This document shows, piece after piece, positions 10,529-37,893 of a DNA stretch of 37,893 nt; position 1 is the first letter of the stretch, and each line of letters starts with the position of its first letter. The DNA is from Prevotella sp. (GTDB taxonomy: Bacteria; Bacteroidota; Bacteroidia; Bacteroidales; Bacteroidaceae). The notes under the pieces were generated by a model. It was not told the origin of the DNA. It was given only the letters and a program-made list of their open reading frames with translations, and made no database searches. The stretch is taken from positions 1 through 37,893 of the forward strand of contig JAFSKJ010000045.1 of assembly GCA_017449025.1 (NCBI GenBank), in the 5' to 3' direction. The position numbers were made by a program, and so were the translations under genes.

Positions 10529-10553
10529 AACCGTTAGTCCCAGAAAAATAAAG

Positions 10554-11889: not shown

Positions 11890-11893
11890 TGCG

Positions 11894-13774: not shown

Positions 13775-13787
13775 CAAAGAGACGAGC

Positions 13788-15701: not shown

Positions 15702-15775
15702 ACTCAAACCTACAAAACCTACAAAAACCTACAAAACCTACCAAACCTACCGAACCTACCAAACCTACAAAACCT
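15702..15775 (+). repeat. Spacer minisatellite of AAACCTAC type
   Basis: The whole 74-nt gap between the LtaS-like and CE2-like genes is built from 9-11 nt units (AAACCTACA, AAACCTACC, GAACCTACC) and runs up to the ATG at 15776. No Shine-Dalgarno or promoter box is seen in it. Confidence 0.85.
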
Positions 15776-16930
15776 ATGAAGAAAAATCTCTTTATCACAC
15801 TTGCCCTAATCGCCGCCACACTGTCGCAGCCTGCCGCCTCTCTCAGTGCCAAGACTTCAACCACCATCCCCCAACGCGGCACCATAATAAAACCCACCGA
15901 CCCGAACATCCAGTACACGGGCCGCATAAGTTTTCACAATCCCGAGCGCCCCGTGTTCAACTACCCCGGCACACAGATTGCCGCCACCTTCACCGGCACC
16001 AGCCTGAAGCTCATAGCAAAGCCGCGCAGCGGATATTTCATGGCGCAGATAGACCGCGCCGAGCCGTTCAAGGTGGCATTGCGAGGCGAGCGCGACTCTG
16101 TGGTCACTCTGGCCACCGCACTTCCCTACGCCCGGCACACCGTCAGGTTGATGTACATTGTCGAGGGCTTCGAGCTGATGCCAGAGTTCTGGGGGTTCAT
16201 CCTCGATGAGGGCTGCTCTCTCTGTGAACCGCCGCAGTTGCCAAAGCGGAAGATAGAGTTCGTGGGCAACAGCATCACCTGCGGCTACGGCAACGAGAGC
16301 ATGGAGCGCACCGACCCCTTCGAATACGAGACAGAGAACCACTACTACACCTACGCCGCCATCACATCGCGCGCACTCAACGCCCAGCACTGGGTAGTGG
16401 CACGTAGCGGCATTGGGGCCTACCGCAACTACAACGGTCCACGGGCCGGTACGCCCGACAACCGCATGGACGCACAATACAACTATACTCTCTACGCCGA
16501 ACGCTCTAAGTACCGCCAAAGGAGTGCCGCCGAGGGAGAGAAGTGGGACTTCAGCCGCTGCCAGCCCGACGTGGTGTGCATAAACCTCTGCACCAACGAC
16601 CTCTCCACTCCCAACTACGACCTGCGCCTCTTCAAGCAAGGCTACAAGACGGTGCTCGGACAGGTGCGCAGCGGCAACCCCAACGCCGCCATCGTGCTGC
16701 TTTGCGGCAGCATGCTCGGAGGCAAGGAGCTGGAGCTTGCCAAGCAGACGCTGAACGAGATAGCCGACGAATGTCACCGCTCAGGCGACAAGCGCGTCTA
16801 CCGCTTCGACTTCACTCCCCAGACCGGCGACCTCAAGTATGGTGCCAGCTGGCATCCCAGCCTGTGGCAGCACGAGAAAATGGCCGGCGAACTAACCGCA
16901 TTCCTAAGAACAGTAATGCAGTGGTACTGA
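15776..16930 (+). CDS. CE2-like SGNH esterase, secreted
   Basis: 384 residues. Signal peptide (1-25) is followed by a beta-sandwich domain like CE2_N (about 45-145). An SGNH hydrolase domain (about 155-384) follows. Catalytic serine lies in EFVGNSITCGYGNE (about 162-175); this is the block I canonical place, with GNS instead of GDS. The oxyanion Asn-Asp lies in CINLCTNDLSTPNYD, and the catalytic His in SWHPSLWQHEKMA near the C-terminus. Carbohydrate esterase family 2 enzymes remove acetyl groups from sugars. The neighbouring acyltransferase and second SGNH hydrolase suggest glycan acyl editing, an inference. Both flanking spacers are AAACCTACC-type minisatellites. Confidence 0.85.
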   Translation: MKKNLFITLALIAATLSQPAASLSAKTSTTIPQRGTIIKPTDPNIQYTGRISFHNPERPVFNYPGTQIAATFTGTSLKLIAKPRSGYFMAQIDRAEPFKVALRGERDSVVTLATALPYARHTVRLMYIVEGFELMPEFWGFILDEGCSLCEPPQLPKRKIEFVGNSITCGYGNESMERTDPFEYETENHYYTYAAITSRALNAQHWVVARSGIGAYRNYNGPRAGTPDNRMDAQYNYTLYAERSKYRQRSAAEGEKWDFSRCQPDVVCINLCTNDLSTPNYDLRLFKQGYKTVLGQVRSGNPNAAIVLLCGSMLGGKELELAKQTLNEIADECHRSGDKRVYRFDFTPQTGDLKYGASWHPSLWQHEKMAGELTAFLRTVMQWY

Positions 16931-22017: not shown

Positions 22018-23487
22018 CTAAAAACCACGCCTTTTACGGTAATCATCAAAGGTGTTTAGTCTGTTATAAACAGGAACACTCCTACGAACTACCGTAACCA
22101 CAGTCTTGTAAGAAAAGAAATGAGAAATGCGTGCTCTGACAGGCATACCATCTTTGACAGCAGGCTGCCACCCTTTTGTCTTTCGGAGACAGCGGATGAC
22201 ATCTTTTACGGCCTTTAAGTCATTACCCCGCTCCACGACTGGACAAGAAATACGTCCGTCTGTTTCAACTATGAAAGATACAACTACGTTCACTATTTCA
22301 TTTTTTTTGCTAAGGTGCTGCTTCATGTACTCATCTAAACCGTCTTCAGTTTTTAGCCGTGGCCTGATAATACTCCCATTAGCATTATATGACGTAAGGT
22401 CATATACGACATCAGTGCCATTTTTCTCTCCATACTTTTTCATTATATCGCCAGACACTTCTTTTGATTTTTTACTAATCGTTGTTATGTCTTCGCTTGA
22501 AAGAGCTGAGATTTGCTTATTAATGCCACTTATCCAGTACTCATTATCCAGCAAATATAGATGCATATCCTTATATGGTTTCTTGTCTTCCGCATAAAGA
22601 TTCCCTATGCTATTTCTTCCTCTAATATATACACACAAGTTACTTGACGAGGGTGAAACATTATTATTTCCAGCCCCAAAAACTGCTACCAACATCATTC
22701 TGTATCTTACGGGATTTCCGTCAATTGTGGCAGGAGCAAATCTTTGTATCTTTTTCAATCCATCCTTAACCGCATCAATGAAAAGGTCGTTGCAAGATTT
22801 TGAAATGCTATTTGAAACATTACCATAGGTGGTTATGCGAGTATTTCTTGGCAACACGTTGGAAATGCTTCCGTCTTTTTCGACAACAAAGCTCAAATGC
22901 ACGACACCGTCAACGTTGTTATCCTCGGCAAGTTGTGGGTATTTTATTGTCTTTGATGCAATTTCTTGAAATTGAGCTTCGCCTTCTGGATAGGAAGGCA
23001 CGACATCAACTTTTTCGTATATTGAATCATTATCGTCGACAACATCAGTGTTGGCGAAAGTATTATCATCTTGAAGATTTTTTGTTGGCGTATAGTCAGT
23101 TGGCCTAAGACGAAATGTTACAGGAATGTTATACTTCACACGGACAGCCTTTCCATTTTGCATGCCAGGTCTCCACTTAGGCATACCCTTTACAACCCTA
23201 ACAGCCTCTTTGTCAAGTGACGGTTCTACGGACTTTACTACTCTAACGTCAGTGACAGAACCGTCAGTGCCAACTATGAACGAACAAACGACCTTTCCTT
23301 CTAAACCATTTTCTTTAGCGTCAACAGGGTATATAATCTGATTTGACAAGTAATTAATGAGAGAAGAAGCACCACCAGGGAAAGAGGGCATCTGGTCTAC
23401 TACTTTATACACTTTGTTTTCTTCTGTTTGCGCTTGTAAAAGCGAGCAGAAGCCTCCCAACAGAAGCATTAATAAGAAACTCTTCAT
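22018..23487 (-). CDS. Secreted protein with three TonB C-terminal-like domains
   Basis: 489 residues. Signal peptide (1-20) is followed directly by a TonB C-terminal-type domain (about 25-130): DQMPSFPGGASSLINYLSNQ, then EGKVVCSFIVGTDGSVTDVR. A second, more diverged copy is at about 160-285 (VVPSYPEGEAQFQEIASKTI, GVVHLSFVVEKDGSISNV). A third lies at about 380-475 (VNVVVSFIVETDGRISCPVV, then KGWQPAVKDGMPVRAR). The N-terminal membrane anchor and Pro-rich spacer of an energy-coupling TonB are absent, so it probably works as a periplasmic binding or scaffold protein, not as an ExbBD partner. It is the last gene of the minus-strand cluster, separated by 186 nt, so it may have its own promoter. 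Confidence 0.78.
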   Translation of the reverse strand: MKSFLLMLLLGGFCSLLQAQTEENKVYKVVDQMPSFPGGASSLINYLSNQIIYPVDAKENGLEGKVVCSFIVGTDGSVTDVRVVKSVEPSLDKEAVRVVKGMPKWRPGMQNGKAVRVKYNIPVTFRLRPTDYTPTKNLQDDNTFANTDVVDDNDSIYEKVDVVPSYPEGEAQFQEIASKTIKYPQLAEDNNVDGVVHLSFVVEKDGSISNVLPRNTRITTYGNVSNSISKSCNDLFIDAVKDGLKKIQRFAPATIDGNPVRYRMMLVAVFGAGNNNVSPSSSNLCVYIRGRNSIGNLYAEDKKPYKDMHLYLLDNEYWISGINKQISALSSEDITTISKKSKEVSGDIMKKYGEKNGTDVVYDLTSYNANGSIIRPRLKTEDGLDEYMKQHLSKKNEIVNVVVSFIVETDGRISCPVVERGNDLKAVKDVIRCLRKTKGWQPAVKDGMPVRARISHFFSYKTVVTVVRRSVPVYNRLNTFDDYRKRRGF

Positions 23488-23673
23488 ATTTTTTTCGTTA
23501 GATATTATGTCTATGCAGTAATAGTAGTTAATCTGTATCAGGTCTTCGGTAGTACTTCTGTGATTCTGGATTGCGCTCTACTGTATAGGCGTCTGACCGC
23601 GGTACTCCTTTTTACCTCTATATTGTCACGATTATGCCATACATGTATAATAAACTAAACATATTGATGTTAG

Positions 23674-24510
23674 TTACCTACTGGTTTTTCCATTATAAAA
23701 TAACGCCTTGATGTATCTAATAACGCCTAATAATGCGTAAAAGCCTCCACAGCCCAGCGCCCCCCAAGCAAGGATATAACGTCCACCTCCATTGCTTTCA
23801 GCAATACGATGTGTTACACCAGTGATAATCATTCCTATAATAAAAATAATGCTTCCTACCAAAATAGTCTTTATGGCGGACTTCTTTCTTTGCTGCTTTA
23901 CGACTAATATCATTCTGTCTGTAATCATTGCTGCCCCTTTTTCCTTGAGACCGTCCTTTTTCAGAATCTGTATTACCTCTTGTCTTGACCTGTCACATTG
24001 GGCTAATTGAAAACCGGCTTTGAGGTGGGAGCTATGATAGGCATACGAGGGGATTCCGTTTGCATCACAGCCCCTATTGAGGTCTATGTCAATTTCTGAA
24101 TAAAGCAATGACAAATCCATGTCACCGAAATAGACAGCAATTCCCTCCAAGCGTCCTATGTAGCCATCATCAAAGGGAGATATTCCTTTTTCGCTCTGCT
24201 CCTTAATCTTCATCTGTAACTTTTCAAACGCTTCAAGTTCCCCAACAGAGGCATAGGGCCTGATGGTGTCTATGTTGATACCGATTTTTTCTTTAGGTTT
24301 AATCCGCTCAGCCACAACAGCATACATATAGCCTAACAACCTTCCCTCAAACCTGTTTGCAGGAAAGCCGTTGGTTTCCGGTACTTTTAAATAGAGACCT
24401 CCGTTCTTTGAAGTCTTTATCAATTCCAATGCTAAAGGAAACTCACTCTTTGGAGAATCGATCCACTCTGCCGACATTCTAACTTTTTCTTCCATTCTAT
24501 CAATATTCAT
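23674..24510 (-). CDS. Hypothetical protein with two C-terminal membrane helices
   Basis: 278 residues, family not recognised. The first 210 residues appear soluble, with no signal peptide. Two membrane helices follow near the C-terminus (KTILVGSIIFIIGMIITGV, about 214-232, and ILAWGALGCGGFYALLGVI, about 244-262) joined by a short loop, and a basic tail. Topology with both ends in the cytoplasm is likely. It lies 55 nt behind the ABC permease gene, in the same orientation, so it probably belongs to the operon and might be a cytoplasmic partner of the transporter; that is inference. An ATG at 24495 is an alternative start. Confidence 0.65.
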   Translation of the reverse strand: MNIDRMEEKVRMSAEWIDSPKSEFPLALELIKTSKNGGLYLKVPETNGFPANRFEGRLLGYMYAVVAERIKPKEKIGINIDTIRPYASVGELEAFEKLQMKIKEQSEKGISPFDDGYIGRLEGIAVYFGDMDLSLLYSEIDIDLNRGCDANGIPSYAYHSSHLKAGFQLAQCDRSRQEVIQILKKDGLKEKGAAMITDRMILVVKQQRKKSAIKTILVGSIIFIIGMIITGVTHRIAESNGGGRYILAWGALGCGGFYALLGVIRYIKALFYNGKTSR

Positions 24511-24565
24511 TTATTACAATAATGCTTATGGGTAATCGACTTTTTATAACACTAATTCAAGCTCC

Positions 24566-26170
24566 TCACCCTCTGTCGTAAATCAAGTCTCCTGGGGTTT
24601 GGTTGAGCATGCGTGACATGACAACAATGACAGTGGCGATAGTAGACAAAAGAATAACTGCTGTTGCAACATAAGTAGTAACATTCCATAGACAAAGGTA
24701 ATTGAAACCGTCTTTTTCCACACCCATGAGCGGCAGCAATACTTGAACAAGCCAAGTTATAAACAAAGCGAATACCACCGCCGAACATACTATGCACACC
24801 AGAATTACCACATAAACATTGATAAGCTCGGCAGCATTCATACCAAAAGCCTTGAAAGTTCCAATGTTCCGTTTCACCTTCTGGAAATAGCTTTGCAGCA
24901 TGTTTACCAAGAACATGATGATGCATACAATGCTGAAGACAACCATTGCAACAGAAAGAATGCCTGCCATCACACTGACAGCGTTGAAGTTCTCCTTTGA
25001 GTTAACTTGCGTCATCTCTATCTGAAGCTCAGAAACCTGTTTGACATAACGTTCAAACGGACGAATGGAATCGAGACGAATAAAATGAGCAGAAATGACA
25101 TCGTCAGAAGTTGTGTTTCTTGTATTCCCGCCATCGTTAAGTTCTTCCATTGTCTCCTTCATGCTTTCATTATAGTCGTACACACGGATGACACCTTTCC
25201 CCTCATAGAGCTTAAGGATCTCTTTTTCCACAGTGCAGTATGCCATAACCGGAGTTCCGGGGAAACCAACTTCCACACTCATAATATGCCCCTTTTTCCA
25301 AGACAGCAACCGCTGCTGCACCCTCTCTTCTGTAGCATCCACATAGGCACTGTTTCTCAATGAGTCCGGCAAAACGGTCTGGATATGCTGCAGGTCAAAG
25401 TCGGTGACCTCTTCAGGAACAAAGAAACGCAGTTTCCTTACATATTTCTCATTGTTCATGTTGAAAGGCTTGTCAATGGCATCGTCGTTCAACTGCTTAT
25501 AGAGATATTTCGACGAAACCATCTCTTTATTCATCGGGAGTCTCTTCACTACAGCAAGCAGCGGCAATGGCGAACGCACATAATCGCCATCAAGAAGATC
25601 ATAGCCCAAAGTGTCAGCACCTTCGGCCTTCTGGTGACAATCAACAAACGATGGGGGATTGTTACGGTTGAACCCCAAATGCTCCAAAGCATCAGCTGTC
25701 ATAATAACGCCAAGGGAGTTCTCGCTAATACTGTCGGCATCTATACTTAGCCCATTTACCACATTGTCCTCGCTGAGAACTGCAGCAATAAGGTCGCTGC
25801 CCATATCCTCGTAATAAAGTATACTGAACAGAGGAACCTTACCTGAAGGAGAGACCAAGTCAAGAGAGGCATTTATCTCAGTCTGAATACCATCAAACAA
25901 ATATCTTTGGCGAATCGACTCGTTTTCAAGTGAGTCCCTAAGAATACCTATTTTCTCCAACGAAGCGTCACGGTTTATGTTAACCCAGTTGGTAAAAGGG
26001 TCGTTCATCTTTTCCTTAAGATAGTCCATGCTGCCAGAAGAGAAGGCAATGGAAAAGAATGTGGCAGTCAACACCATGACAAGTAGCCAAAAATTGGATG
26101 CGTGACGACCAATGATGACGCGAGCCTCGCGCCGCATAAGCAAATCCTGATATTCCTTAAAAAGTTTCAT
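24566..26170 (-). CDS. MacB/FtsX-like ABC transporter permease
   Basis: 534 residues. One N-terminal membrane helix (FWLLVMVLTATFFSIAF, about 27-43), a large external domain (about 50-390), and three C-terminal helices (about 395-425, 450-475 and 495-520) give the MacB/LolE-type layout. The FtsX signature region reads YFQKVKRNIGTFKAFGMNAA. Such permeases move no substrate across the inner membrane; they use ATP to drive work in the periplasm (mechanotransmission), for example on lipoproteins or exported peptides. The ATG is one base after the stop of the ATPase gene, so the two are coupled. The substrate is unknown; the neighbours suggest a role in assembling or servicing the envelope complex. 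Confidence 0.82.
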   Translation of the reverse strand: MKLFKEYQDLLMRREARVIIGRHASNFWLLVMVLTATFFSIAFSSGSMDYLKEKMNDPFTNWVNINRDASLEKIGILRDSLENESIRQRYLFDGIQTEINASLDLVSPSGKVPLFSILYYEDMGSDLIAAVLSEDNVVNGLSIDADSISENSLGVIMTADALEHLGFNRNNPPSFVDCHQKAEGADTLGYDLLDGDYVRSPLPLLAVVKRLPMNKEMVSSKYLYKQLNDDAIDKPFNMNNEKYVRKLRFFVPEEVTDFDLQHIQTVLPDSLRNSAYVDATEERVQQRLLSWKKGHIMSVEVGFPGTPVMAYCTVEKEILKLYEGKGVIRVYDYNESMKETMEELNDGGNTRNTTSDDVISAHFIRLDSIRPFERYVKQVSELQIEMTQVNSKENFNAVSVMAGILSVAMVVFSIVCIIMFLVNMLQSYFQKVKRNIGTFKAFGMNAAELINVYVVILVCIVCSAVVFALFITWLVQVLLPLMGVEKDGFNYLCLWNVTTYVATAVILLSTIATVIVVMSRMLNQTPGDLIYDRG

Positions 26171-26171
26171 G

Positions 26172-27038
26172 CTACTTCTTTCTTAAATACTCCTCAAAAT
26201 CATTAGTAAGATATTCCCCTTTGCCGCCACTCCACTTACTACGGCTCTTGTCAGGGCGGAACACACAGCCATCGTCAATGAAGCCGTATGTTATCTCCTC
26301 ATCGCTAACATTGTTGCTCTTGCGTGACTCTTTGCGGATTTTTATTATTACATCGGCGAAACTTGTCGCCAAGTGCATGTCGTGGCTGACAATAATGGCA
26401 GAAGTGTCCTTCTTCTCGTCCACGCTGGTCGCAATAATCTGCATTACCTTTGCAGCATTGTCGGCATCTAAGTTTCCCGTTGGCTCATCACCAAAAAGAA
26501 CCGTAAATTCCGGTAATATTGCACGGGCGAAAGCCAGTCTTTGCTGTTGCCCGCCAGACAGTTCATGAGCCATGCGAGCCTCGTCAACATGTTCAAGCCC
26601 AAGCGAAGCAAGCACCTGTTTTGTTCGTTCGTAGCACTCCTTTTTATTGTAGCCCTGTAGCATGCGCGTGTAAGCCACATTCTCGTAAGCAGTAAAGTTA
26701 CGCATCAGGTTTGTGCTTTGGAAGATGAAGCTGTACTCCTCCTGGCGGAACTTTGAAAGAGCTTTGTCGCCAGCCCTCCAAAGAGCACAAAGGTCAATGT
26801 CTTTTCCGTCAAGACCATGGAACAGAAACTTTGTTTGGACATCTGGCACAATGGTGTTGTTCATCATGCCTAATGTTTCCAAAATAGTGCTCTTGCCTAT
26901 GCCAGACTCTCCTACAATAAACACTTTCTCTCCGCGGTCAAGCTGGAGATTCTTTATCTCCAGCACCACGCGCGACACTCCCTCTTGGTATGGATGGTCG
27001 TAGGAACACCTAAGGTTCTCAATTGTGAACAGTTTCAT
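26172..27038 (-). CDS. MacB/LolD-like ABC transporter ATPase
   Basis: 288 residues. Cytoplasmic ATPase with Walker A GESGIGKST (about 43-51), Q-loop FIFQSTNLMRNFTAYENVAY, signature LSGGQQQRLAFARA, Walker B VLFGDEPTGNLD and H-loop IIVSHDMHLA. The EPTGNLD sequence and the FQ..NL.....A.EN pattern place it with LolD/MacB-type ATPases. About 60 C-terminal residues after the core (SRKSNNVSDEEITYGFIDDG and on) exceed the usual length and may be a specific contact. It is coupled to the permease gene immediately downstream. Confidence 0.9.
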   Translation of the reverse strand: MKLFTIENLRCSYDHPYQEGVSRVVLEIKNLQLDRGEKVFIVGESGIGKSTILETLGMMNNTIVPDVQTKFLFHGLDGKDIDLCALWRAGDKALSKFRQEEYSFIFQSTNLMRNFTAYENVAYTRMLQGYNKKECYERTKQVLASLGLEHVDEARMAHELSGGQQQRLAFARAILPEFTVLFGDEPTGNLDADNAAKVMQIIATSVDEKKDTSAIIVSHDMHLATSFADVIIKIRKESRKSNNVSDEEITYGFIDDGCVFRPDKSRSKWSGGKGEYLTNDFEEYLRKK

Positions 27039-27056
27039 TCGAAGTGGTAATTTGCT

Positions 27057-28571
27057 TTATGGCAACATTTCAATTGGAATCCAGTAGTAGAATACATGGT
27101 TCACCTCAAGGCGGTACTTGTAACCACTGTATTGCAGTCGTCGAAGCTCCTCGTATTTCTTTGAGAAGTTATCAAGTATTTCAAAATATTCGGGGTTCTT
27201 TACCACGCTGCTGTTAGCCATGTCCTTAAGAGAATACTTGGTGAATCGCATGCTCTCGGTAGGTATGTTCAAGCCATAGATTGCTGTTTCAAGCTCACTT
27301 GATGACATGTTGTTGATTCTCTTCTCGTCATCGTCGCCTAATTGCATCTTGAGAAGTGCGCGAATTGCATTGATAAAATGAGTTCGGTCCTGGCTCTTCA
27401 TCTTTGCAGCCTCACTTATAGTCTTCAACTTGGCAATCAAGTCTTCAAGCTCCCCAGGAGAAAGATAAATAATATAGTGCCAATAATCATTTCCGTCAGA
27501 ATCCTTCAACTTAACATAGCTGTCAATCAAATTTTCGGCTCTAACTTGTTTCCATGAATCATAGCCACGCTCTCCCAAAATTCTTTTTATTAATTCCTTA
27601 TTAATAGTATTGTCTATTCTCGTATTGTCAACAAACGCCAAACACCTAATTGCATTCTTTTTTTTATCAGGTTCTTCCAGAACAGGGTAACGGAGCAGAC
27701 TTGGCTCCATCCTATACATTGTGCTTCTATTATTGTCAATGTGGTTTTGTTGGCCGTACTGCCAGTAAGTAATTATTTCATCTTCAGAAAAACTATCTGA
27801 GTTGTAGAAATATGCTCTCTCATTAATGTGATTATCCACGAAATCCGGATTCCAATTCGGCTCGATGCATAAGCGCTGGTTCCAAGCGACATAGTCATCG
27901 CGATTCACCCATCCATAAAGGTTGTTTCCTGTAAGTCTTGATTGCAGGGAGAGCAATGCTCTGGTTCCGTCTGGTGTTTCCTTCATTATGTAAGAGGCCC
28001 ACACACCATGAATAGAACATTCTGGGTTGGTGTTCTTCGTTGGATGTTTGTAGTAGTTGCCACTAAACCCTTTTCTTGAATCCTTTTTATTAAGAATGTG
28101 GCCAACAAATGCTTTTTTTAACACCCCTTGGTCGTCAGACGGGCAAATACTCCAAAGTAGCAAGTGTTCCATAGGCACCCAACCTATGCTTTTTGCATTA
28201 GATGGGATATCCGGGAATTTGTCCAATTTCGGGTCTGTATACACCAAAGCCATGTTATTCTCAATCTTTGCAACAACGACCTGCTCTCCGAAACTCAGCC
28301 TCTTAGGAGATATGGCCGACCCAACCGTCGGTTCCATATATGCCACATTTCTGTCTCTGTCGCTATATACAACCCATGGCCTGTCACTCTTTTTCATCTG
28401 CCCCCACCTGCCTCCAGCCTTGAATTCTGTTTCAAGGTCGCTTAATTTCAATACGTTATTGCGGAGCATTGCTGGCATGAAAGCATCTGCTTTTGGGGGC
28501 AATAGCGGCTGTGCGCTTACGGAAAGCAAGCAGCAAGCCAAGGAAGTCAGAATAGTGGACAAACGCATCAT
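27057..28571 (-). CDS. TssR-like secreted protein, short paralogue without VWA domain
   Basis: 504 residues. Signal peptide (1-20) is followed by two SH3-like units: first WVVYSDRDRNVAYMEP to GWVPMEHLLLW (about 66-140), then YYKHPTKNTNP to NLYGWVNRDDYVAWNQRLC (about 172-235). A C-terminal helical domain (about 330-504) ends in YYWIPIEMLP. These resemble the Bacteroidota T6SS component TssR. Compared with the upstream 777-aa paralogue it lacks the roughly 210-residue VWA domain and the segment after it. The C-terminal 175 residues are almost identical in the two proteins (also at DNA level), while the N-termini differ more. The gene starts 3 nt after the stop of the longer copy. It probably acts with, or competes with, the longer copy in one complex. 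Confidence 0.62.
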   Translation of the reverse strand: MMRLSTILTSLACCLLSVSAQPLLPPKADAFMPAMLRNNVLKLSDLETEFKAGGRWGQMKKSDRPWVVYSDRDRNVAYMEPTVGSAISPKRLSFGEQVVVAKIENNMALVYTDPKLDKFPDIPSNAKSIGWVPMEHLLLWSICPSDDQGVLKKAFVGHILNKKDSRKGFSGNYYKHPTKNTNPECSIHGVWASYIMKETPDGTRALLSLQSRLTGNNLYGWVNRDDYVAWNQRLCIEPNWNPDFVDNHINERAYFYNSDSFSEDEIITYWQYGQQNHIDNNRSTMYRMEPSLLRYPVLEEPDKKKNAIRCLAFVDNTRIDNTINKELIKRILGERGYDSWKQVRAENLIDSYVKLKDSDGNDYWHYIIYLSPGELEDLIAKLKTISEAAKMKSQDRTHFINAIRALLKMQLGDDDEKRINNMSSSELETAIYGLNIPTESMRFTKYSLKDMANSSVVKNPEYFEILDNFSKKYEELRRLQYSGYKYRLEVNHVFYYWIPIEMLP

Positions 28572-28574
28572 TAC

Positions 28575-30908: not shown

Positions 30909-30921
30909 AATCTGAAAAAAA

Positions 30922-31566
30922 TTAATAATTCTTTCTTACATTGATAGTTTCATTGATATTGTCAGGGTTCAATATTCCAAACGGATTGTTTTCGTCTATT
31001 TCGATTGAACGGGGACAAATTACATTAAAACGAAATCTGTCATTGGCAAGATAGAAAGAAAGATCCAACTCAAAATACATAGCTGCAATCAATACTTCGT
31101 TGTTACTCATAGTCCAAAATGACTGACCAACATTGAATACGAAATATGTGCTTCCATAGATGAGATTTCTTTCGTTGTCCACAAAGTTATACTCTTTGAG
31201 CAATTCCAAGATACGCTGCTTGTCATAAGAACCGTCAACAGAGCTTGATGTATTCTGTCTCAACCAGTTAAGAAGTCTTTCTTCGAAGTCATCGCGGTTG
31301 TCATCGCTCATGTTCACCTTTACTATAATAGGTTCACTGCCATTAGCAAGATAGAAGATGGCAGGGCCTTCAAGTAAAGCATGGTTATATGCATCCTGCA
31401 AATCCTTGAGCAGAGCCTGCAATGGAATTGATGGGTCCATTGCTGTATAGACAAATCGGAATGTTTGTTTAGAAGGTGTTGTCTCAGCCTCGTCTTGAGC
31501 CATCGTTGGCGTTGACGACAGAAGTGCTAAGCATAATAAAGTAAAAATTAAAGATAATCGTTTCAT
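30922..31566 (-). CDS. Small secreted protein of unknown function
   Basis: 214 residues. Signal peptide MKRLSLIFTLLCLALLSSTP (1-23, ending in MAQ) is followed by an acidic, mostly beta/alpha mature protein without membrane segment or lipobox. Visible segments include FRFVYTAMDPSIPLQALLKD, ALLEGPAIFYLANGSEPIIV, FVFNVGQSFWTMSNNEVLIA and a charged C-terminus. No family is recognised. It sits between the lipoprotein gene (26 nt) and the TssR-like gene (13 nt) in the same operon, so it is likely a periplasmic subunit of the same complex; this rests only on position. Confidence 0.65.
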   Translation of the reverse strand: MKRLSLIFTLLCLALLSSTPTMAQDEAETTPSKQTFRFVYTAMDPSIPLQALLKDLQDAYNHALLEGPAIFYLANGSEPIIVKVNMSDDNRDDFEERLLNWLRQNTSSSVDGSYDKQRILELLKEYNFVDNERNLIYGSTYFVFNVGQSFWTMSNNEVLIAAMYFELDLSFYLANDRFRFNVICPRSIEIDENNPFGILNPDNINETINVRKNY

Positions 31567-31592
31567 ATCAGTATGTTTTTAGTTGTTTCATT

Positions 31593-32279
31593 TTAAAAGT
31601 CTTCATCATAGTCCTCATCTTCAATTTGCTGTTCCCCAACAGGTTTAAGCTTAATTGCAGTAATCAGGTTGTTGTCATCATAACTAACATCTGTGACGGT
31701 AACAGATTTCCACACGCCGTTTTTCAGGAGTGTTATTACATCTTGTAAAGAAGAAGCTTCCATCTGTGTGTCAGTAACAACCACGCTTAGCCCTTGAGCC
31801 AGATGAAGATTGTTTCCAAGTATTAGACTTTTGTCTTGAGAGTTTATTAGTTTCTGCAGCTCATCTGCCGGAATCTTGTCGACAGGTTCCCGCGGAACCA
31901 CAAATCCTACAATATGCGTCAGTGGTGTAGTGATGGTTGTATCGCTCCACTCTGCCTGCAGCCTGACATTATATCCTTCTTCAAATGGTGGTATGCCACT
32001 AAACTGCCCGTCAGTGTTCTGCATCAGGATGCTGTCTCCATCAAGCAGGAAGAATGTAACCTTTGCGTCAGCAGTACTGTCGGCATGCAAGGACAGGTTG
32101 AATGTCTTGCTTGCCTCATCAAAGACAATAGTGTCGCAGACTAAGGTCGGCTCGCCACGGGGAGTAACCTCCGAATCGGTCGGTGCTGCCGTATTCTTAC
32201 AGCCCACGATTAGGGAGGCAGAGACGGCTATAAGCAATGTTCCAAAAAATGAATTCTTTCTTTTCATCTTCTTTGCCAT
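31593..32279 (-). CDS. Operon lipoprotein of unknown function
   Basis: 228 residues. Lipoprotein signal with lipobox IVGC (acylated Cys27), then a Thr/Pro-rich linker and a beta-rich domain (about 45-130: PTLVCDTIVFDEASKTFNLS, KVTFFLLDGDSILM). A second part holds about 135-215, and the chain ends in an acidic tail (EDEDYDEDF). No family is recognised. Its ATG overlaps the stop of the coiled-coil gene (TAATG), so the two are translationally coupled and probably made in fixed ratio. A lipoprotein partner beside an inner-membrane protein and a periplasmic VWA protein is a usual composition for an envelope-spanning complex; the role is inferred. Confidence 0.7.
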   Translation of the reverse strand: MAKKMKRKNSFFGTLLIAVSASLIVGCKNTAAPTDSEVTPRGEPTLVCDTIVFDEASKTFNLSLHADSTADAKVTFFLLDGDSILMQNTDGQFSGIPPFEEGYNVRLQAEWSDTTITTPLTHIVGFVVPREPVDKIPADELQKLINSQDKSLILGNNLHLAQGLSVVVTDTQMEASSLQDVITLLKNGVWKSVTVTDVSYDDNNLITAIKLKPVGEQQIEDEDYDEDF

Positions 32280-33031
32280 TATTGTTCATCGTAATTTTGG
32301 CTGGATACAGCAGAAACATTAACACTACGTACCATCCCGTTGTCGTCTATGTCAATACTGTTTACTCTGATGTTAGTGTAAGTATGGCCTCTAACACCTT
32401 GTCTGAAGTTCTGATAATCCATCGCTCTTCCATTAACATTAATTTTACAGCTGTCAGGGATTTTCTTACTGGAGCTGCCAGAGACTACTATTATTGAAAT
32501 TTGGCTCTTCAGTTTGTCCTCGGCAGCCTTTCGTTCCTTTGCCTCTATCTCTTTTCGAGCTTGCTCTTCTCTTTCTTTTTGAGCCTTCAGTTCTTGCTCT
32601 TTCCTTTCTTTTTCTATTCGAGCTTGCTCTTCTCTTTCCTTTTGAGCCTTCATCTCCTGTTCTTTCCTTTCTTTTTCTATTCGAGCTTGCTCATTTCTCA
32701 GCTGTATGTTTCTCTCTATAGCAAGTTCTTCCTCCTCAGTCAGATCCCTCTTCTCTCTTTTCCAAGTGTTTGTTTCATTCAATTCGTTCTGACGATTCAC
32801 ATCAGTTGTGTCATTGTCATTCTTCAACTGTTTTTGGTCAGAAACATTTTGAGTCTGATTTCCAGAAGAAAGAGTATCATTATCATCCACATCAGGATTA
32901 TTATATTCACCCTTAATTGTTTTTACCTCTGTATCCTTCTCCTTAATCAAAGGAGCCGCAAAGTAGCCGACGACAATACTAACTCCAAAGACGGCATACA
33001 GCCTCATAAGGCTTTTATTGTTTATATGCAT
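32279..33031 (-). CDS. Inner-membrane protein with long coiled coil
   Basis: 250 residues. One membrane helix near the N-terminus (LYAVFGVSIVVGYFAAPLI, about 11-29), then an acidic/Asn-rich linker (30-95). A highly charged helical segment (about 96-180) is made of a 21-residue repeat (cores such as IEKERKEQEMKAQKEREEQA, then IEKERKEQELKAQKEREEQA), and a small C-terminal domain (about 180-250) includes KINVNGRAMDYQNFRQGVRG. The arrangement recalls TolA-type proteins: inner-membrane anchor, rod across the periplasm, end domain. The repeat is 63 bp at DNA level (32556-32618, 32619-32681, partial third copy from 32682). It lies 12 nt behind the outer-membrane barrel gene and overlaps the lipoprotein gene by one base. 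Confidence 0.75.
   Translation of the reverse strand: MHINNKSLMRLYAVFGVSIVVGYFAAPLIKEKDTEVKTIKGEYNNPDVDDNDTLSSGNQTQNVSDQKQLKNDNDTTDVNRQNELNETNTWKREKRDLTEEEELAIERNIQLRNEQARIEKERKEQEMKAQKEREEQARIEKERKEQELKAQKEREEQARKEIEAKERKAAEDKLKSQISIIVVSGSSSKKIPDSCKINVNGRAMDYQNFRQGVRGHTYTNIRVNSIDIDDNGMVRSVNVSAVSSQNYDEQ
32556..32700 (-). repeat. 63-bp in-frame tandem repeat of the coiled coil
   Basis: Two full copies (32556-32618 and 32619-32681) differ at few positions and are followed by the beginning of a third (32682 on). Each adds 21 residues, or three heptads, so copy number would change rod length without a frameshift. Confidence 0.85.
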
Positions 33032-33043
33032 AACTCAACCGAT

Positions 33044-34609
33044 TTAGAATTTGTAAATAAGTGATACGGCAGCTTTCAGAGCACCGTGGCTGACACCTTC
33101 AGAGTGGCGGATAAAGCTATAGAACTTTTCACCACCCTCCTTGGTATAGTGCGCAAGATCATTACTCTTGTTGCTGGTCTTCCAGCTCTTTGTACCTGTC
33201 TGGTACTGTATGCCAGCATCTACTGCAAACGACTTGCCTATATTCAGACGCAGTCCCAAGCCCAATATGGCATCTATTGCCATGCTCTTCGTCGGGTCGG
33301 TATCATCAATCTCAATATCACCAGCCTGATGATAGCCAAAATCGTTCAACACAACTTCGCCTTTTTTTCCGACCTCGGTTAAACCTTTGTATTTCTCTGT
33401 CTTGCTGTAGTCTCCCCACACCGTATACCCATTACTGGTGCTGCCAGTGAGCTTGCCCGTTGATGTCTGGAACTTAACGCCCAGGTCTGCATATACAGAT
33501 ACTGTTGGGGCCACACGGTACTCTAAATCCAGATAAACGGGAATGGCAAGGTCTGAAGCCTTCATCTCTTGAGTAATGCTACTTACAGAGTCTTTTCCTA
33601 TCTGATACTTACGGGTATACGTGTCACCATCTTCATCGTAGTTATCTGCATCTGCATTTGATTCAAGCGTCCCTCCATTTGAGGTCATTTCCATGGTTAG
33701 CGTGTTCGACGACAACCCGATACCGACAAACACACCTGTCTGAAGCCTGCCTGTCGACGGGAACACATATCCCAAGTCCACTCCAAAGCTCATCTCTCCT
33801 GCTTTAGATGTCTTAATATCGTTAGAAGCTTTACTGAGTTTGTTGAAGTCAGTCAGTGCAAAAGCCATGTTGGGGCGAACGCGGAACGAGCGGTCGTTGT
33901 ATTTGGCATACACTTTATTGTCACATTCTCCCTTGACCTTTTCCTCTTCCACATCCGATCCCAAATACTTTATCTTGTCGCCGGGGTGAAGCAGCACCTG
34001 GTCGTAAGGGTTGAAGGACAGTATGCTGCCGTTGATGGTCAGCTTGTCGTCGCGCTTGTCGTTCTTCACCAACACCTTGTAGTTCTTCGGGAACTTCACC
34101 GGCTCGCCATCAGCCTTCAGTGCACTGATATAGCAACGCCCCGAGTACTTGTCAATGTTGAGTGTGGCTATCAGCTTATAGTTGTTCTTGAAGTACTCTT
34201 GAGAGTCGAAGAAAGTGCCGCACGAGTTCACGTACGAGATGCTCTTCTCCATCATTATAGGCAGAGACCAGTAGTCCCCTTCGTCCTTTATCTGGCCTTT
34301 CCTGATATTCTTCACCGTAACAGTCACCGTCTTGGCACTGCGAAGTGTTTTCACATAGTCATCAACGGTCAGCGTTGGCGCTTCACTCAGGCTCATCAGG
34401 TCGTTGTATATTTTCATCGACGTATTGGCGAACAGACTCTTGAAATGATCCTCCTTGTTGTCGTCATACACCGATGCCGCCTGCGCATACTCATTAACCA
34501 CGGCATACGCCTTCTGGTAAACACGTCGCTCCTCTTGTGTGGTCAACGATTGGGCTATAGCCGCAGTTGCCATTATCGAGGCAATCAAAACTAATATATG
34601 CTTTTTCAT
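33044..34609 (-). CDS. Outer-membrane beta-barrel protein with N-terminal periplasmic domain
   Basis: 521 residues. Signal peptide MKKHILVLIASIMATAAIAQ. The first half (about 20-240) is a globular domain with helices and beta strands (EERRVYQKAYAVVNEYAQAA; VTVTVKNIRKGQIKDEGDYW). The second half (about 265-521) shows barrel strands: EMSFGVDLGYVFPSTG, GVFVGIGLSSNTLTMEM, IPVYLDLEYRVAPTVSVYAD, AILGLGLRLNIGKSF, and a terminal strand LKAAVSLIYKF ending in Phe. This fits an outer-membrane anchor (eight-strand type) with a periplasmic part. Family not recognised. It lies 19 nt behind the BACON gene and 12 nt ahead of the coiled-coil gene. Confidence 0.72.
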   Translation of the reverse strand: MKKHILVLIASIMATAAIAQSLTTQEERRVYQKAYAVVNEYAQAASVYDDNKEDHFKSLFANTSMKIYNDLMSLSEAPTLTVDDYVKTLRSAKTVTVTVKNIRKGQIKDEGDYWSLPIMMEKSISYVNSCGTFFDSQEYFKNNYKLIATLNIDKYSGRCYISALKADGEPVKFPKNYKVLVKNDKRDDKLTINGSILSFNPYDQVLLHPGDKIKYLGSDVEEEKVKGECDNKVYAKYNDRSFRVRPNMAFALTDFNKLSKASNDIKTSKAGEMSFGVDLGYVFPSTGRLQTGVFVGIGLSSNTLTMEMTSNGGTLESNADADNYDEDGDTYTRKYQIGKDSVSSITQEMKASDLAIPVYLDLEYRVAPTVSVYADLGVKFQTSTGKLTGSTSNGYTVWGDYSKTEKYKGLTEVGKKGEVVLNDFGYHQAGDIEIDDTDPTKSMAIDAILGLGLRLNIGKSFAVDAGIQYQTGTKSWKTSNKSNDLAHYTKEGGEKFYSFIRHSEGVSHGALKAAVSLIYKF

Positions 34610-34628
34610 GTTTGTTCCTCCTTTCTGT

Positions 34629-37600
34629 TTATCTAATCACCATTTTTTCTTCTATTTTCTTATCACCAATGTTGCAGCGAACGATGTAGAGGCCGCTGGG
34701 TAGGCCGTTAAGGTCTATCTGCTCATCGAATATGCAACGAGGCTCAAAATCTATACGTCTCACTGTAGCTCCACTCATAGCAACAATTTCTGCGGTTGCC
34801 GAGACTGGTGCGGAGACATTTGCCACCAAGTGACCATGCCTAAGCATTACATCAGCTTGCTCAACCGAACTAATACCTGTATCTGAAGCACGCGTATTAG
34901 AATCGTACTCTATTCTACAGCTTTGAATAGGCTTGCCGGCAATCTCCCACTGGGTACGTACCCATTTCTCTTTATTGTTGTCTGCCACAATGCTATTGCC
35001 ATACTGGTAATATCTATAGTTATAGCCTTTAGTAGTACATTCTTTGTTGTCGTATCCAAAAACAAAACTGTAATCCTTCATTTCACTGTCACTCAAGCCC
35101 TCAAAAGTAGCAATCAGTATTCCAGAATTTCCATTTCCTTTTAAAACCAATTTAGCCGGAGCCACTGGGCTGGGATAAATCTCAAATGATATTTCTTTAC
35201 TGTTTTCTGATGGATAGTTCTTATAATACAATGTAACCTTACCATCTAATGGCTTTTGGGGTCTTGTTTTGCTGATTGAGTAATTGCAGCTTAAGCCGTC
35301 TTTCTCTATAGTTGTACCGTCAATGTCCCACTTTAGTGCCCATTCATCACGAACAAAATCGGGGGTCGGATTATCTGTGCTCACTTTAAATGTTGCTTCC
35401 TTTCCTGCCTCTGGTGTAAAAAAACCATCATTATCATCAGCAAGCTTAATAAAGTCTGGAATTTGAGGCCTAGCCCTCTGTTCTATTGGAAGCGATACAG
35501 TATTTAGATTTCCATAACCATCATAATAATCAATTTTTATTTCTGCACTATGTTCTTTGTACTCACTATTAGGATTAATATGCAAAAAGATTTGTTTCTC
35601 TACCGACGTTTTATCCGACTTTGTAACTACAACAGATGTGATAGAAACCCAAGACTTATTGCCACCTATCTCTGGCTTCCAGTCTGTATTAACGCCTGTT
35701 ACAACAATTTCAAAGTTGCCACCACTTACATCCGAATGAAGCGTACCATCAGAATGCTTGTCATCAACAATTTCAAACTTGAATTCTTCCTTGCCACCCT
35801 GTTTTATTATAACAGAATCTTTTTTCTCACCTTCTTCTGTTTCCCAGGAGAAAGCAATTGCCGATTGACGCTCTTCACCTTCGTTCTTTTCAATAGTGAT
35901 CTTTAATTTTTCTGTCTTTTTCCCCTTATATTCTTTATTTCCATTTATCTCAACCCAACCTTTTTCGGAACTTGCTTCCCAAGAATCTATTGATGTCGAA
36001 ACGTCAATTGTAAACTCTCCTCCATCCTTGAACAGGTTGACTGTCTTCGGTTTTATTTCAATGCTGGTTGGAGCTGCCTGTTGAGTGACTATTATTGTAT
36101 CATTAACATCAACACTCCCATTATTCCAAGTAACAATGATATTGGCTGTACGTTCTGCACCCCCATTCTTCTTGGCCTCATATTTTACAGTGTAATTGTT
36201 TTGGCCTTCTCCGTTTTCTGGGTCAGTAATAACAAGCCATGAATCATCACTACTAACAATATTCCATTTAACATTGCTTGTAATGTCAAATTGTTTTTCG
36301 CCACCTTCATATACAAATCTTGGAGAATCATTTATTCCTATGCTAAGATCTTTTTCAGTGCCAATCTGAATAACGGTAATTGTTTCATTTTTTTCTTCTT
36401 TACCATCGTTCCATGTCACCGTTACTTGACCATAACGTGTAGGTCCGTCGTTTTCTTCTGCTTCAACAGTGACTTTTGCATTATTCTTGCCTTCCCCATT
36501 TTCAGGTTCCTTAATCGTCAGCCAGTCAACTAAACTCTCCACCTTCCAATTAACGTTGCTAAACACCTCGAAAGATGCAGTCCTGTCATCTCCAATTCGA
36601 GTTTCATTTGTGTTTACAGTAAGTTCTAAATCGTTGCTGAACTGTGTGACTGTAATTGTCTCAACAATGTCTTCTTTACCGTCATTCCATGTTACCGTAA
36701 CTTGGCCTTCACGAGTGGTCTCACTGTCCTCTTTTGCTTCAATAGTAACTGTAGCATTGTCTCTGCCTTCTCCATTTTCAGGCTCCTTAATCGTCAGCCA
36801 GTCAACCAAACTCTTTACCTTCCAGCTAACGTTGCTAACAATGTCGAACGATGCACTTCCATTCTCAATTAAGAGAGCCTTATTGTTTACCTTAAGTCCT
36901 GGGGTGTTGCCAAGCTGGGTAATGGTAATAGTCTCCACGACATCTTCTTTACCGTCATTCCATGTTACCGTAACTTGAGTCTCTCGCGTATCGCCAGGGT
37001 TTGTTTCAGCTTCAACAGCAACTTTGTAAGTATCCTTGCCACTTCCATTTTCAGGATCCTTGATTGTCAGCCAGTCAGCCAAGCTCTCTACCTTCCAGCT
37101 AACATTGCTGGCGATTTCGAAGGAGCCATCTCCGCCTTTATAATCAAATAGGATTTTATCAGTACTTACCTTTAAATCAGGTTCGTTGCCAAGCTGAGTA
37201 ATGGTAATAGTGTTAAATTTATCCTTAATGCCATTATTCCATCTTACAGAAACTTGCGCTGTACGTTTTGGTCCATGGTTTTCTTTGGCCTCAATGATAA
37301 CTGTAGCATTATCTTTACCTTCTCCATTTTCTGGTTCTTTTATGCTCAGCCATTTTGCATCACACGTGACTGTCCAGTTAACATTGCTGGCTACATCGAA
37401 AGTCTTTGGGCCACCTTCAACACCGAAATTCAGTGTGTTAGTACTTAACTTTAAATCAGGGGTAAGTCCAAACTGAGAAACAGTCACAGTTACAGGCTGA
37501 AGACCCTCACCGTTGACAGTGAAAGTTGCCGTTCTGTTTGTGGGAGCAGAATTCTCGGAAGCAGAGACTTTAATCTTGCCATCTTCCTTTGTAATGGTAA

Positions 37601-37893
37601 GCCATTCTATGTTCTGTTCTCCTTTATATGAGACTTCTGACAATTGCCACTCAACGTTAGTCGCAACTTCTATTTCGTATTCGCCACCTGGGACGGCAAA
37701 AGACAATTGGTGAACGTTAAGAACAATATATGGGGCGTAGCCAAACTGAGTAACCTCTATTGTCTGGCTTGTGCCACCGCCTGATACTGTAATTTTTGCA
37801 GGACGTGAGTCAGAATTTGTGTTTTCCTTCGCATGCACAGTAACGGTAACAGGAGAAGGTTCATTTCCTTCACCACTGTCATTTTTAGTTATC
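34629..37893 (-). CDS. Large BACON-repeat protein with T9SS sorting tail (5' end off window)
   Basis: At least 1,087 residues; the reading frame is open to the right edge, so the start is missing. At least eight BACON-like Ig repeats of about 90 residues are visible, with the consensus 'GG...F.V.SNV.W.V......WL.I..PENG.GK' and ending '..TITVTQ'. The middle copies (36,300-37,300) are almost identical. BACON domains bind carbohydrates or mucin-like ligands, or serve as surface spacers. After a further beta domain, the C-terminal 75 residues (LRHGHLVANVSAPV, then GLPSGLYIVRCN and KIEEKMVIR) look like a type A sorting domain of the type IX secretion system, so the protein should reach the outer surface. 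It is the first visible gene of the long minus-strand operon and is 19 nt ahead of the outer-membrane barrel gene. Confidence 0.82.
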   Translation of the reverse strand, partial: ITKNDSGEGNEPSPVTVTVHAKENTNSDSRPAKITVSGGGTSQTIEVTQFGYAPYIVLNVHQLSFAVPGGEYEIEVATNVEWQLSEVSYKGEQNIEWLTITKEDGKIKVSASENSAPTNRTATFTVNGEGLQPVTVTVSQFGLTPDLKLSTNTLNFGVEGGPKTFDVASNVNWTVTCDAKWLSIKEPENGEGKDNATVIIEAKENHGPKRTAQVSVRWNNGIKDKFNTITITQLGNEPDLKVSTDKILFDYKGGDGSFEIASNVSWKVESLADWLTIKDPENGSGKDTYKVAVEAETNPGDTRETQVTVTWNDGKEDVVETITITQLGNTPGLKVNNKALLIENGSASFDIVSNVSWKVKSLVDWLTIKEPENGEGRDNATVTIEAKEDSETTREGQVTVTWNDGKEDIVETITVTQFSNDLELTVNTNETRIGDDRTASFEVFSNVNWKVESLVDWLTIKEPENGEGKNNAKVTVEAEENDGPTRYGQVTVTWNDGKEEKNETITVIQIGTEKDLSIGINDSPRFVYEGGEKQFDITSNVKWNIVSSDDSWLVITDPENGEGQNNYTVKYEAKKNGGAERTANIIVTWNNGSVDVNDTIIVTQQAAPTSIEIKPKTVNLFKDGGEFTIDVSTSIDSWEASSEKGWVEINGNKEYKGKKTEKLKITIEKNEGEERQSAIAFSWETEEGEKKDSVIIKQGGKEEFKFEIVDDKHSDGTLHSDVSGGNFEIVVTGVNTDWKPEIGGNKSWVSITSVVVTKSDKTSVEKQIFLHINPNSEYKEHSAEIKIDYYDGYGNLNTVSLPIEQRARPQIPDFIKLADDNDGFFTPEAGKEATFKVSTDNPTPDFVRDEWALKWDIDGTTIEKDGLSCNYSISKTRPQKPLDGKVTLYYKNYPSENSKEISFEIYPSPVAPAKLVLKGNGNSGILIATFEGLSDSEMKDYSFVFGYDNKECTTKGYNYRYYQYGNSIVADNNKEKWVRTQWEIAGKPIQSCRIEYDSNTRASDTGISSVEQADVMLRHGHLVANVSAPVSATAEIVAMSGATVRRIDFEPRCIFDEQIDLNGLPSGLYIVRCNIGDKKIEEKMVIR
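36330..37330 (-). repeat. Tandem BACON-coding DNA repeats of about 275 bp
   Basis: The segment TCGTCAGCCAGTC or a close variant recurs at 36515, 36791 and 37064, 276 and 273 bp apart, with long similar stretches around each. The near identity indicates recent duplication or gene conversion among the repeats. Confidence 0.75.

What the first reader, a model, noticed from the sequence alone, without database searches (positions are those of the whole stretch)
22018..37893. Possible new envelope-spanning system built around a TssR-like protein
Eleven minus-strand genes, most 1-55 nt apart, encode in order a T9SS-exported BACON giant, an outer-membrane barrel with periplasmic domain, a TM plus coiled-coil rod, a lipoprotein, a secreted protein, two TssR-like proteins, a MacB-like ABC pair, a two-TM protein and a triple TonB_C-like protein. 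Together they can cover inner membrane, periplasm, outer membrane and surface. TssR is known as part of the Bacteroidota T6SS membrane complex, yet no sheath, Hcp, VgrG, ClpV or baseplate gene is seen. Inference: a TssR-based complex was recruited for another job, such as surface display, adhesion or export, powered by the ABC pair. The region is AT-richer than the 4,873-16,930 block, which suggests separate acquisition.
Basis: partly seen in the sequence, partly recalled or inferred. Interest (0 to 1): 0.78.

Follow-up and report, generated by a model that had tools for sequence, protein, structure and literature searches.

The report
TssR envelope machine without T6SS
A Bacteroidales genome carries a conserved set of genes that seems to reach from the cell surface to cytoplasmic on/off switch enzymes and is built around TssR, a protein known as an anchor of a bacterial injection weapon, although two marker genes of that weapon were not found in this genome assembly; it may be a relative, or even the ancestor, of that anchor.

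Summary
In detail: eleven minus-strand genes in one tight row, with two TssR homologues (Pfam TssR above cut-off). TssR is followed directly by the ABC ATPase and/or FtsX-type permease in 14 of 16 non-T6SS TssR loci (12 with both, 1 ATPase cut by the contig end, 1 permease only) and in 0 of 11 T6SS-layout loci. Of 20 genomes with an ABC-linked TssR, 18 lack TssN and TssC (one a probably misbinned contig) and 2 have them. TssR splits into a T6SS-containing clade and an ABC clade (100/100); the ABC clade keeps the VWA metal site in 15 of 19 rows, T6SS rows in 0 of 14. A second contig of the assembly (C127) very probably holds the operon's 5' half: zinc ribbon, Ser/Thr kinase+FHA, FHA, PP2C, kinase, start of the BACON gene. 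Such genes follow the ABC pair in 5 of 9 relatives with enough sequence. Best reading: a trans-envelope complex wired like Pseudomonas TagQRST–PpkA–PppA–Fha but without a T6SS. The signalling role is inferred.

The parts
34629..37892 (-). Giant secreted BACON-repeat protein, 5' end cut by the contig end; weak T9SS-type C-terminal tail
   Evidence: Pfam BACON, 8 stretches, Por_Secre_tail below cut-off; homologue in the same place in L026; N-terminal part with a hydrophobic leader probably on contig C127
33044..34609 (-). Outer-membrane barrel (OmpA-like, about 8 long strands) with an N-terminal domain
   Evidence: AF2: whole-model mean pLDDT 58, barrel half 34-91 per 10-residue block with strands mostly above 72; Foldseek OmpA TM domain, TMt 0.66; homologue in L026 at 5e-52
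32279..33031 (-). N-terminal TM plus charged coiled-coil rod and short C-terminal domain
   Evidence: sequence; hydropathy TM at residues 8-26; only weak coiled-coil-type family matches
31593..32279 (-). Probable lipoprotein; place of TssP or the Zn-ribbon/TM protein of relatives, homology not shown
   Evidence: sequence (Cys27 after a leader, read by eye); no family match; blastp and hhalign negative
30922..31566 (-). Small secreted protein of predicted VWA-like fold, gene directly upstream of TssR
   Evidence: family HMM, AF2 pLDDT 71, Foldseek mostly VWA domains, low TM-scores
28575..30908 (-). TssR homologue with VWA domain; MIDAS residues lost in this copy
   Evidence: Pfam TssR, TssR_VWA above cut-off; MIDAS reading
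27057..28571 (-). TssR homologue without the VWA domain, tandem duplicate of the previous gene
   Evidence: Pfam TssR above cut-off; 87% DNA identity to its neighbour over the last ~545 columns, 75% over a 655-column stretch near the 5' end
26172..27038 (-). ABC ATPase with Walker A, signature and H-loop motifs
   Evidence: ABC_tran; best NCBIfam models LolD and FtsE type, below cut-off (25 of 199 shown); motifs
24566..26170 (-). FtsX/MacB-type permease, four TM by hydropathy, about 360-residue periplasmic domain
   Evidence: Pfam FtsX above cut-off; TM positions; family profile's only PDB hit up to E 0.1 is FtsX, E 0.014
23674..24510 (-). Protein with two C-terminal TM helices, function unknown
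22018..23487 (-). Secreted protein with three TonB_C stretches; 186 nt gap, membership in the system less sure
   Evidence: PF03544 3.5e-38, three stretches; weak relatives in L028 and L029

Best explanation
This is one copy of a Bacteroidota trans-envelope system that uses TssR without a T6SS. Anatomy (by sequence): surface giant, outer-membrane barrel, periplasmic rod and lipoprotein, a small VWA-like protein, one or more TssR proteins, an FtsX/MacB-type ABC pair in the inner membrane, and (here on contig C127, linked by inference) Ser/Thr kinases, PP2C phosphatase and FHA proteins. Mechanism (inferred): an event at the surface or outer membrane (contact, ligand or damage) moves the TssR/VWA relay; the ABC pair couples ATP hydrolysis to periplasmic movement, as type VII ABC proteins do (recalled), rather than exporting a solute; and the state is read out as kinase phosphorylation of FHA proteins, reset by PP2C. 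This is the logic of TagQRST-PpkA-PppA-Fha of Pseudomonas H1-T6SS, with the injection machine absent. What FHA recruits here is unknown; in one relative SrfB/SrfC and a subtilase stand in the operon.
For: ATPase and/or permease directly after TssR in 14 of 16 non-T6SS loci, 0 of 11 T6SS-layout loci; small VWA-like gene or domain directly upstream in 11 of 15, 0 of 11. Kinase, PP2C or FHA genes in 5 of the 9 loci that extend at least 3 kb past the permease, 0 of 11 T6SS-layout loci, and on C127 of the own genome, whose BACON start shares a 154-bp, 92% block with the window's end and with no other place in the assembly. TssN and TssC absent in 18 of 20 genomes with ABC-linked TssR, while both ring in T6SS genomes. 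Separate TssR clade, 100/100. Intact MIDAS 15 of 19 against 0 of 14. FtsX-type topology. TagQRST logic read in passages of PMC6657622 and PMC11881912.
Against: No experiment. C127 is tied to the window only by inference; there is no exact end overlap, and the genome has a second kinase-FHA-PP2C cluster elsewhere. 4 of the 9 long loci lack kinase/PP2C/FHA genes; one has SrfB/SrfC instead. The local profiles behind searches were built partly from the loci they then hit. The permease was not compared with TagS, and no TagQ or TagR homologue was shown. W06 (28575-30908) itself has lost the MIDAS. Two genomes carry both T6SS and a TssR-ABC locus (G537, G657), so some copies may serve a T6SS; G615 has the small VWA gene beside a T6SS TssR. 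The rod and lipoprotein have no demonstrated relation to TssO/P/Q. Direction of signalling is unshown.
Confidence: 0.55

Rival explanations
1. A surface-display, adhesion or export machine: the ABC pair drives assembly or release of the giant BACON protein through the barrel, and the kinase/phosphatase set regulates it.
For: Large surface proteins, several with T9SS tails, stand upstream in several loci; barrel present; MacB-type ABC pairs can drive export (recalled).
Against: Proteins with T9SS-type tails would leave by another route; no TolC-like or adaptor gene among the window-operon proteins scanned; the permease profile's only PDB hit is FtsX.
Confidence: 0.2
2. A degenerate or scattered T6SS: TssR and partners are the membrane complex of a T6SS whose other genes are missing from the assembly or lost.
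For: G537 and G657 have a T6SS cluster on one contig and TssP-small VWA-TssR-ABC on another, with no second TssR found at E 1e-8; G615 has giant-barrel-type protein-TssP-small VWA-TssR in one gene row with TssN; the window genome is only 80.65% complete.
Against: Six genomes at least 94% complete have ABC-linked TssR and neither TssN nor TssC; a separate clade with a conserved MIDAS that T6SS TssR lack.
Confidence: 0.12
3. An FtsEX-like system that controls peptidoglycan or envelope remodelling, with TssR as periplasmic activator.
For: Permease profile hits FtsX in PDB; ATPase close to LolD/FtsE models.
Against: No cell-wall hydrolase or amidase family among the operon and C127 proteins scanned; surface giant and barrel not explained.
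Confidence: 0.08
4. A defence system against phage or invading DNA.
For: ATPase matches a MADS model and the C127 kinase matches MADS and PD-T4-6 models.
Against: These look like generic ABC and kinase domain matches, the library has no cut-off, and no nuclease or methylase family was seen among the operon and C127 proteins scanned; most parts look extracytoplasmic.
Confidence: 0.05

Closest known systems
T6SSiii membrane complex TssNQOPR of Bacteroidota (PMC10781749)
   Same: TssR with N-terminal, VWA and C-terminal domains; in G537, G657 and G357 a protein matching the TssP profile stands two genes upstream of TssR
   Different: No TssN or TssC; no hit of the T6SS TssP and TssO/TssQ-position profiles on the five upstream window proteins; an ABC pair, surface giant, barrel and kinase/PP2C/FHA genes; MIDAS intact in most ABC-clade TssR
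TagQRST-PpkA-PppA-Fha threonine phosphorylation pathway of Pseudomonas H1-T6SS (passages of PMC6657622, PMC11881912)
   Same: ABC ATPase and permease, periplasmic and outer-membrane parts, Ser/Thr kinase, PP2C, FHA
   Different: No T6SS found; TssR and a small VWA-like protein where TagR/TagQ would be; homology of the permease to TagS not tested
FtsEX / MacB / LolCDE type VII ABC proteins
   Same: four-TM permease with a large periplasmic domain, LolD/FtsE-like ATPase
   Different: None of the 25 NCBIfam models shown (of 199) reaches its cut-off for the ATPase; no NCBIfam match for the permease
SrfABC operon (PMC6950479, seen as search listing and abstract start)
   Same: SrfB and SrfC families in one relative's operon, L021
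   Different: Not among the window-operon or C127 proteins scanned; seen in one relative only

Membership tests
TssR (PF17643/PF20782) | N-terminal barrel domain above curated cut-off | tested here: met
   44.2 and 39.4 bits, cut-off 25.7
TssR (PF17643/PF20782) | VWA domain | tested here: met
   51.3 bits in 28575-30908; absent in 27057-28571
TssR (PF17643/PF20782) | C-terminal and middle domains above cut-off | tested here: not met
   TssR_C 23.3 and 24.5 bits, TssR_M 16.7 and 16.5, cut-off 25.7
T6SSiii | TssN | tested here: not met
   absent in G000; the same family rings in 17 of 35 genomes (16 distinct)
T6SSiii | Sheath TssC | tested here: not met
   absent in G000; present in 10 of 29 genomes of the same search
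T6SSiii | TssP, TssO, TssQ next to TssR | tested here: inconclusive
   profiles of the three genes before T6SS TssR do not hit window proteins 30922-37892; hhalign of the lipoprotein and rod C-termini no better than decoys
T6SSiii | Hcp, VgrG, ClpV | not tested
   no genome-wide search made; none among the window proteins scanned with Pfam
TagQRST-PpkA-PppA-Fha pathway | ABC pair of FtsX type | tested here: met
TagQRST-PpkA-PppA-Fha pathway | Ser/Thr kinase, PP2C and FHA encoded with it | tested here: inconclusive
   together on C127, whose link to the window is inferred; all three in L026 (Pfam), L052 (local profiles) and on G114's contig (Pfam)
TagQRST-PpkA-PppA-Fha pathway | TagQ and TagR homologues | not tested
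   no reference sequence in hand; an FGE-sulfatase protein, the family I recall for TagR, was seen in one relative's locus, L022/L032

The most novel reading that the evidence does not exclude
The TssR-VWA-ABC-kinase system is the T6SS-free ancestor (or closest living relative of it) from which the Bacteroidota T6SSiii membrane complex was built: a surface-sensing envelope machine with a metal-dependent VWA site and a phosphorylation switch, which then gained a contractile injector and lost its ABC pair and its MIDAS, with G537, G657 and G615 as intermediates.
Probability: 0.3. Interest if true: 0.9.

Novelty: new variant of a known kind. Interest (0 to 1): 0.76.

Why it matters
[quoted passage not shown] a passage of section 16 calls its origin difficult to identify. 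Here TssR of one clade sits in 16 genomes that lack TssN and TssC (17 with a probably misbinned contig), 15 of them with the ABC pair or part of it. That makes the origin question testable, offers a defined multi-gene envelope signalling candidate in mostly uncultured Bacteroidota, and warns that TssR alone is not a T6SS marker.

Tried and rejected
VipB (PF05943) as the T6SS test: 0 of 35 genomes, including genomes where TssN rings, so it cannot see T6SSiii here; its negatives were discarded and replaced by TssN and by a TssC protein from G537.

TssP homology of the lipoprotein and rod: similar-looking C-terminal ends by eye, but hhalign gave 0.1-1.1% probability, and of 60 decoys drawn the best gave 3.6% once three that were TssP proteins themselves are set aside; blastp against the L026 counterpart gave E 0.97. 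Dropped.

PDB sequence searches with the single permease and with the TssR profile: no hit. PADLOC: generic-looking domain matches only. Papers holding TssR, ABC transporter, Bacteroidota and protein kinase, or TssR, kinase and FtsX: 0; at least four of SrfB, SrfC, von Willebrand, FHA, Bacteroidetes: 0.

The AF2 model of the barrel protein is poor overall (mean pLDDT 58, N-terminal half mostly below 60); only its barrel half is used. Near relatives (L039-L041, L046-L048, L061) were left out of the tree and of the MIDAS table; L054 is the same locus as L033 and was not counted; L030, L032, L034, L044 and L049 are the same contigs as those of G114, G056, G203 and G156. L031 is a 4.9-kb contig in a MAG labelled Erysipelotrichaceae, probably misbinned; its TssR is kept in the tree and locus counts, but its genome says little about T6SS absence.
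Full report
What is there. The window is a complete 37,893-bp contig (C86) of a 3.5-Mb, 80.65%-complete assembly. Eleven minus-strand genes fill 22,018-37,892, with gaps of 55 nt or less except the last (186 nt). Pfam shows two TssR homologues, an ABC ATPase, an FtsX-type permease, three TonB_C stretches and eight BACON stretches. The region is AT-richer than 4-17 kb. Below, W06 is the TssR at 28575-30908 and W05 the one at 27057-28571.

The system recurs. A search of 295 same-order genomes with the VWA-bearing TssR found it in 5, the window's own included. A profile search of a named genome collection gave 27 loci. Of these, 11 have a T6SS layout (TssP just before TssR; a protein of 704-842 aa just after it, which I take from the known layout to be TssH/ClpV) and 16 do not. 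In 14 of those 16 the ATPase and/or permease directly follow TssR, against 0 of 11 T6SS-layout loci: 12 have both (some cut by contig ends), in L031 the ATPase is cut by the contig end, in L036 only the permease is seen; the two exceptions are L049 and L051. A small VWA-like protein or domain directly precedes TssR in 11 of the 15 with an upstream gene, against 0 of 11. These counts use profiles built here: four of the 14 loci (L030, L032, L034, L044) gave sequences to the ABC profiles, and 6 of the 11 small VWA proteins were seeds of that profile; the other 10 and 5 were not. A class-wide search (32 of 395 genomes with a match, the weaker ones covering only the VWA region) added further loci outside the seeds: of the seven best non-own ones (L053-L059), six have the ATPase next to TssR (L054 repeats L033), and L053 is a T6SS locus. 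The closest locus, L026, has FHA–kinase–BACON–barrel–(Zn-ribbon/TM protein)–small VWA–TssR–ATPase–permease–kinase–PP2C–177-aa protein–FHA–FHA.

T6SS markers. TssN (PF17555) rings in 17 of 35 genomes (16 distinct, since G537 and G685 are one assembly), among them all 14 genomes tested whose TssR is a T6SS one by layout. TssC from G537 rings in 10 of 29. Nineteen genomes with non-T6SS TssR have neither. In 18 of them the ABC pair or part of it follows TssR; in the nineteenth (G697, locus L051) none is seen. One of the 18 is the MAG labelled Erysipelotrichaceae (L031), where the contig is probably misbinned. Completeness is told for only some; G056 (98), G203 (94), G492 (100), G357 (99), G606 (100) and G559 (99) are at least 94% complete. 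Two genomes, G537 (= G685) and G657, have both an ABC-linked TssR and a T6SS cluster on another contig, with no second TssR found at the threshold used. G615 has a giant, a barrel-type protein, TssP, the small VWA protein and TssR in one gene row with TssN and no ABC pair next to TssR. These look like intermediates and are evidence against a clean separation. Hcp, ClpV and VgrG were not searched genome-wide.

Two TssR clades. A maximum-likelihood tree of 42 sequences splits 18 rows (all 14 T6SS rows plus 4 ABC-linked: L033, L055, L057, L059) from 24 (17 ABC-linked, 5 VWA-less paralogues, 2 without a seen ABC pair) at 100/100; T6SS rows are one group at 98/94 (quick version). It is midpoint-rooted for drawing only, and several rows have long branches. 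Of the 19 VWA-bearing rows of the second clade, 15 have all three MIDAS elements of the VWA domain (DxS/TxS, the D of YRD, GD); the exceptions are W06, L036, L056 and L058. All three are present in 0 of 14 T6SS rows and 0 of the 4 in-between rows. A metal site is more easily lost than gained, so this hints that the ABC type is nearer the ancestor, but no root was tested. VWA-less paralogues group with a VWA-bearing neighbour of the same locus in three cases (W05 with W06, L029, L030_12968), while two (L030_11562, L032_8345) are deep; either the VWA was lost repeatedly or gene conversion has blurred older copies. In the window the two genes are 87% identical in DNA over the last ~545 columns and 75% over 655 columns near the 5' end, as conversion would leave.

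The missing half. FHA and kinase searches of the own genome led to contig C127, 8,022 bp: Zn-ribbon protein, kinase+FHA, FHA, PP2C, kinase, then a BACON protein with a hydrophobic N-terminal segment like a signal peptide that runs off the contig end. A 154-bp block near that end is 92% identical to the first bases of the window's BACON gene, and no third copy is found in the assembly. There is no exact end overlap, so the assembly probably broke within near-identical repeats. Kinase directly upstream of the BACON giant is also the order in L026. The genome has a second kinase–AAA–FHA–PP2C cluster on C23, so these families are not unique to this system here. Among relatives, kinase, PP2C or FHA genes occur in 5 of the 9 named loci that extend at least 3 kb past the permease (L026, L028, L029, L030, L052) and in 0 of the 11 T6SS-layout loci; Pfam supports them in L026, L028, L029 and on G114's contig.

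Other parts. The small protein (30922-31566) is predicted as an alpha/beta domain (pLDDT 71); its PDB matches are mostly VWA domains (complement factors, TFIIH subunits, CMG2), with some other folds; best E 8e-4, TM-scores 0.2-0.5, so a moderate match. Several relatives keep a DxSxS-like motif in its first strand (read by eye). The barrel protein's C-terminal half matches OmpA-type barrels. The permease has TM at 27-45, 404-422, 454-472 and 501-519 by hydropathy, with a large domain between the first two, the topology of MacB/FtsX/LolE proteins (recalled); its profile's only PDB hit is FtsX, E 0.014.

How it may work. TagQRST of Pseudomonas is described as an outer-membrane lipoprotein, a periplasmic protein and an ABC pair that, upon contact or outer-membrane damage, lead to PpkA phosphorylating Fha, reversed by PppA (passages of PMC11881912 and PMC6657622). 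The same functional parts occur here with TssR in the periplasm. Shown: gene content, order and conservation, and the absence of two T6SS markers from the assembly. Inferred: localisation, the C127 link, that the parts form one complex, that the ABC pair transmits movement, and that the signal runs outside-in. What the FHA proteins act on is unknown. In L021/L032 SrfB, SrfC and a subtilase follow the permease, and in L028 an FHA–ABC2 transporter follows further downstream, which suggests variable outputs.

What is known. Section 11 of PMC10781749 reports the TssNQOPR complex only with T6SSiii and that no genome had a complete complex without the other T6SS genes; our loci are not complete complexes either (no TssN), so they do not contradict that sentence, but they show TssR in genomes without TssN and TssC, with a different partner set. 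A word search of its main text found no 'ABC transporter', 'kinase', 'phosphorylation' or 'orphan'. Searches for TssR with ABC transporter and protein kinase, or with kinase and FtsX, found no paper; one search listed four papers, of which only PMC10781749 was opened. The library holds only open-licence PubMed Central papers. The abstract start of PMC6950479 (search listing) describes srfABC as a cytotoxic operon; nothing here tests that.

Verdict. Real, conserved and unusual: a TssR-centred envelope system in Bacteroidota genomes without TssN and TssC, most likely a signalling relay. The anatomy is well supported (about 0.85 by my judgement); the mechanism is an inference (0.55 overall).

Noticed in passing
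window 29-4542, minus strand: NikA-like mobilization protein, DUF3408 protein and a tyrosine recombinase: what looks like the end of an integrative mobile element at the left end of the contig, about 17 kb from the TssR operon.
   Followed up: no
L104 (G000 contig C23) 10424-18120: A second own-genome cluster: kinase, a 1104-aa protein with several AAA modules, FHA with zinc ribbon, and PP2C; no TssR there.
   Followed up: no
L021 384-9683 (G056): SrfB, a 329-aa protein, SrfC and a subtilase directly downstream of the TssR-ABC genes: a possible lead to the role of the SrfB/SrfC families.
   Followed up: partly
L049 9917-12403 (G156 contig 1): A TssR with intact MIDAS and no ABC pair beside it, in a genome that also has an ABC-linked TssR.
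   Followed up: partly
Pfam VipB (PF05943) does not detect T6SSiii genomes in this search, while TssN and a Bacteroidota TssC do; a caution for surveys that use VipB.
   Followed up: yes
window 27057-28571 and 28575-30908: Neighbouring TssR paralogues more alike at the 3' end (87% DNA) than near the 5' end (75%), as if gene conversion were at work.
   Followed up: partly
L028 15506-17998: FHA domains fused to an ABC-2 type transporter two genes downstream of the permease.
   Followed up: no
L031 (JARKSP010000056.1): A Bacteroidota-type TssR-ABC fragment in a MAG labelled Erysipelotrichaceae, probably a misbinned contig.
   Followed up: no
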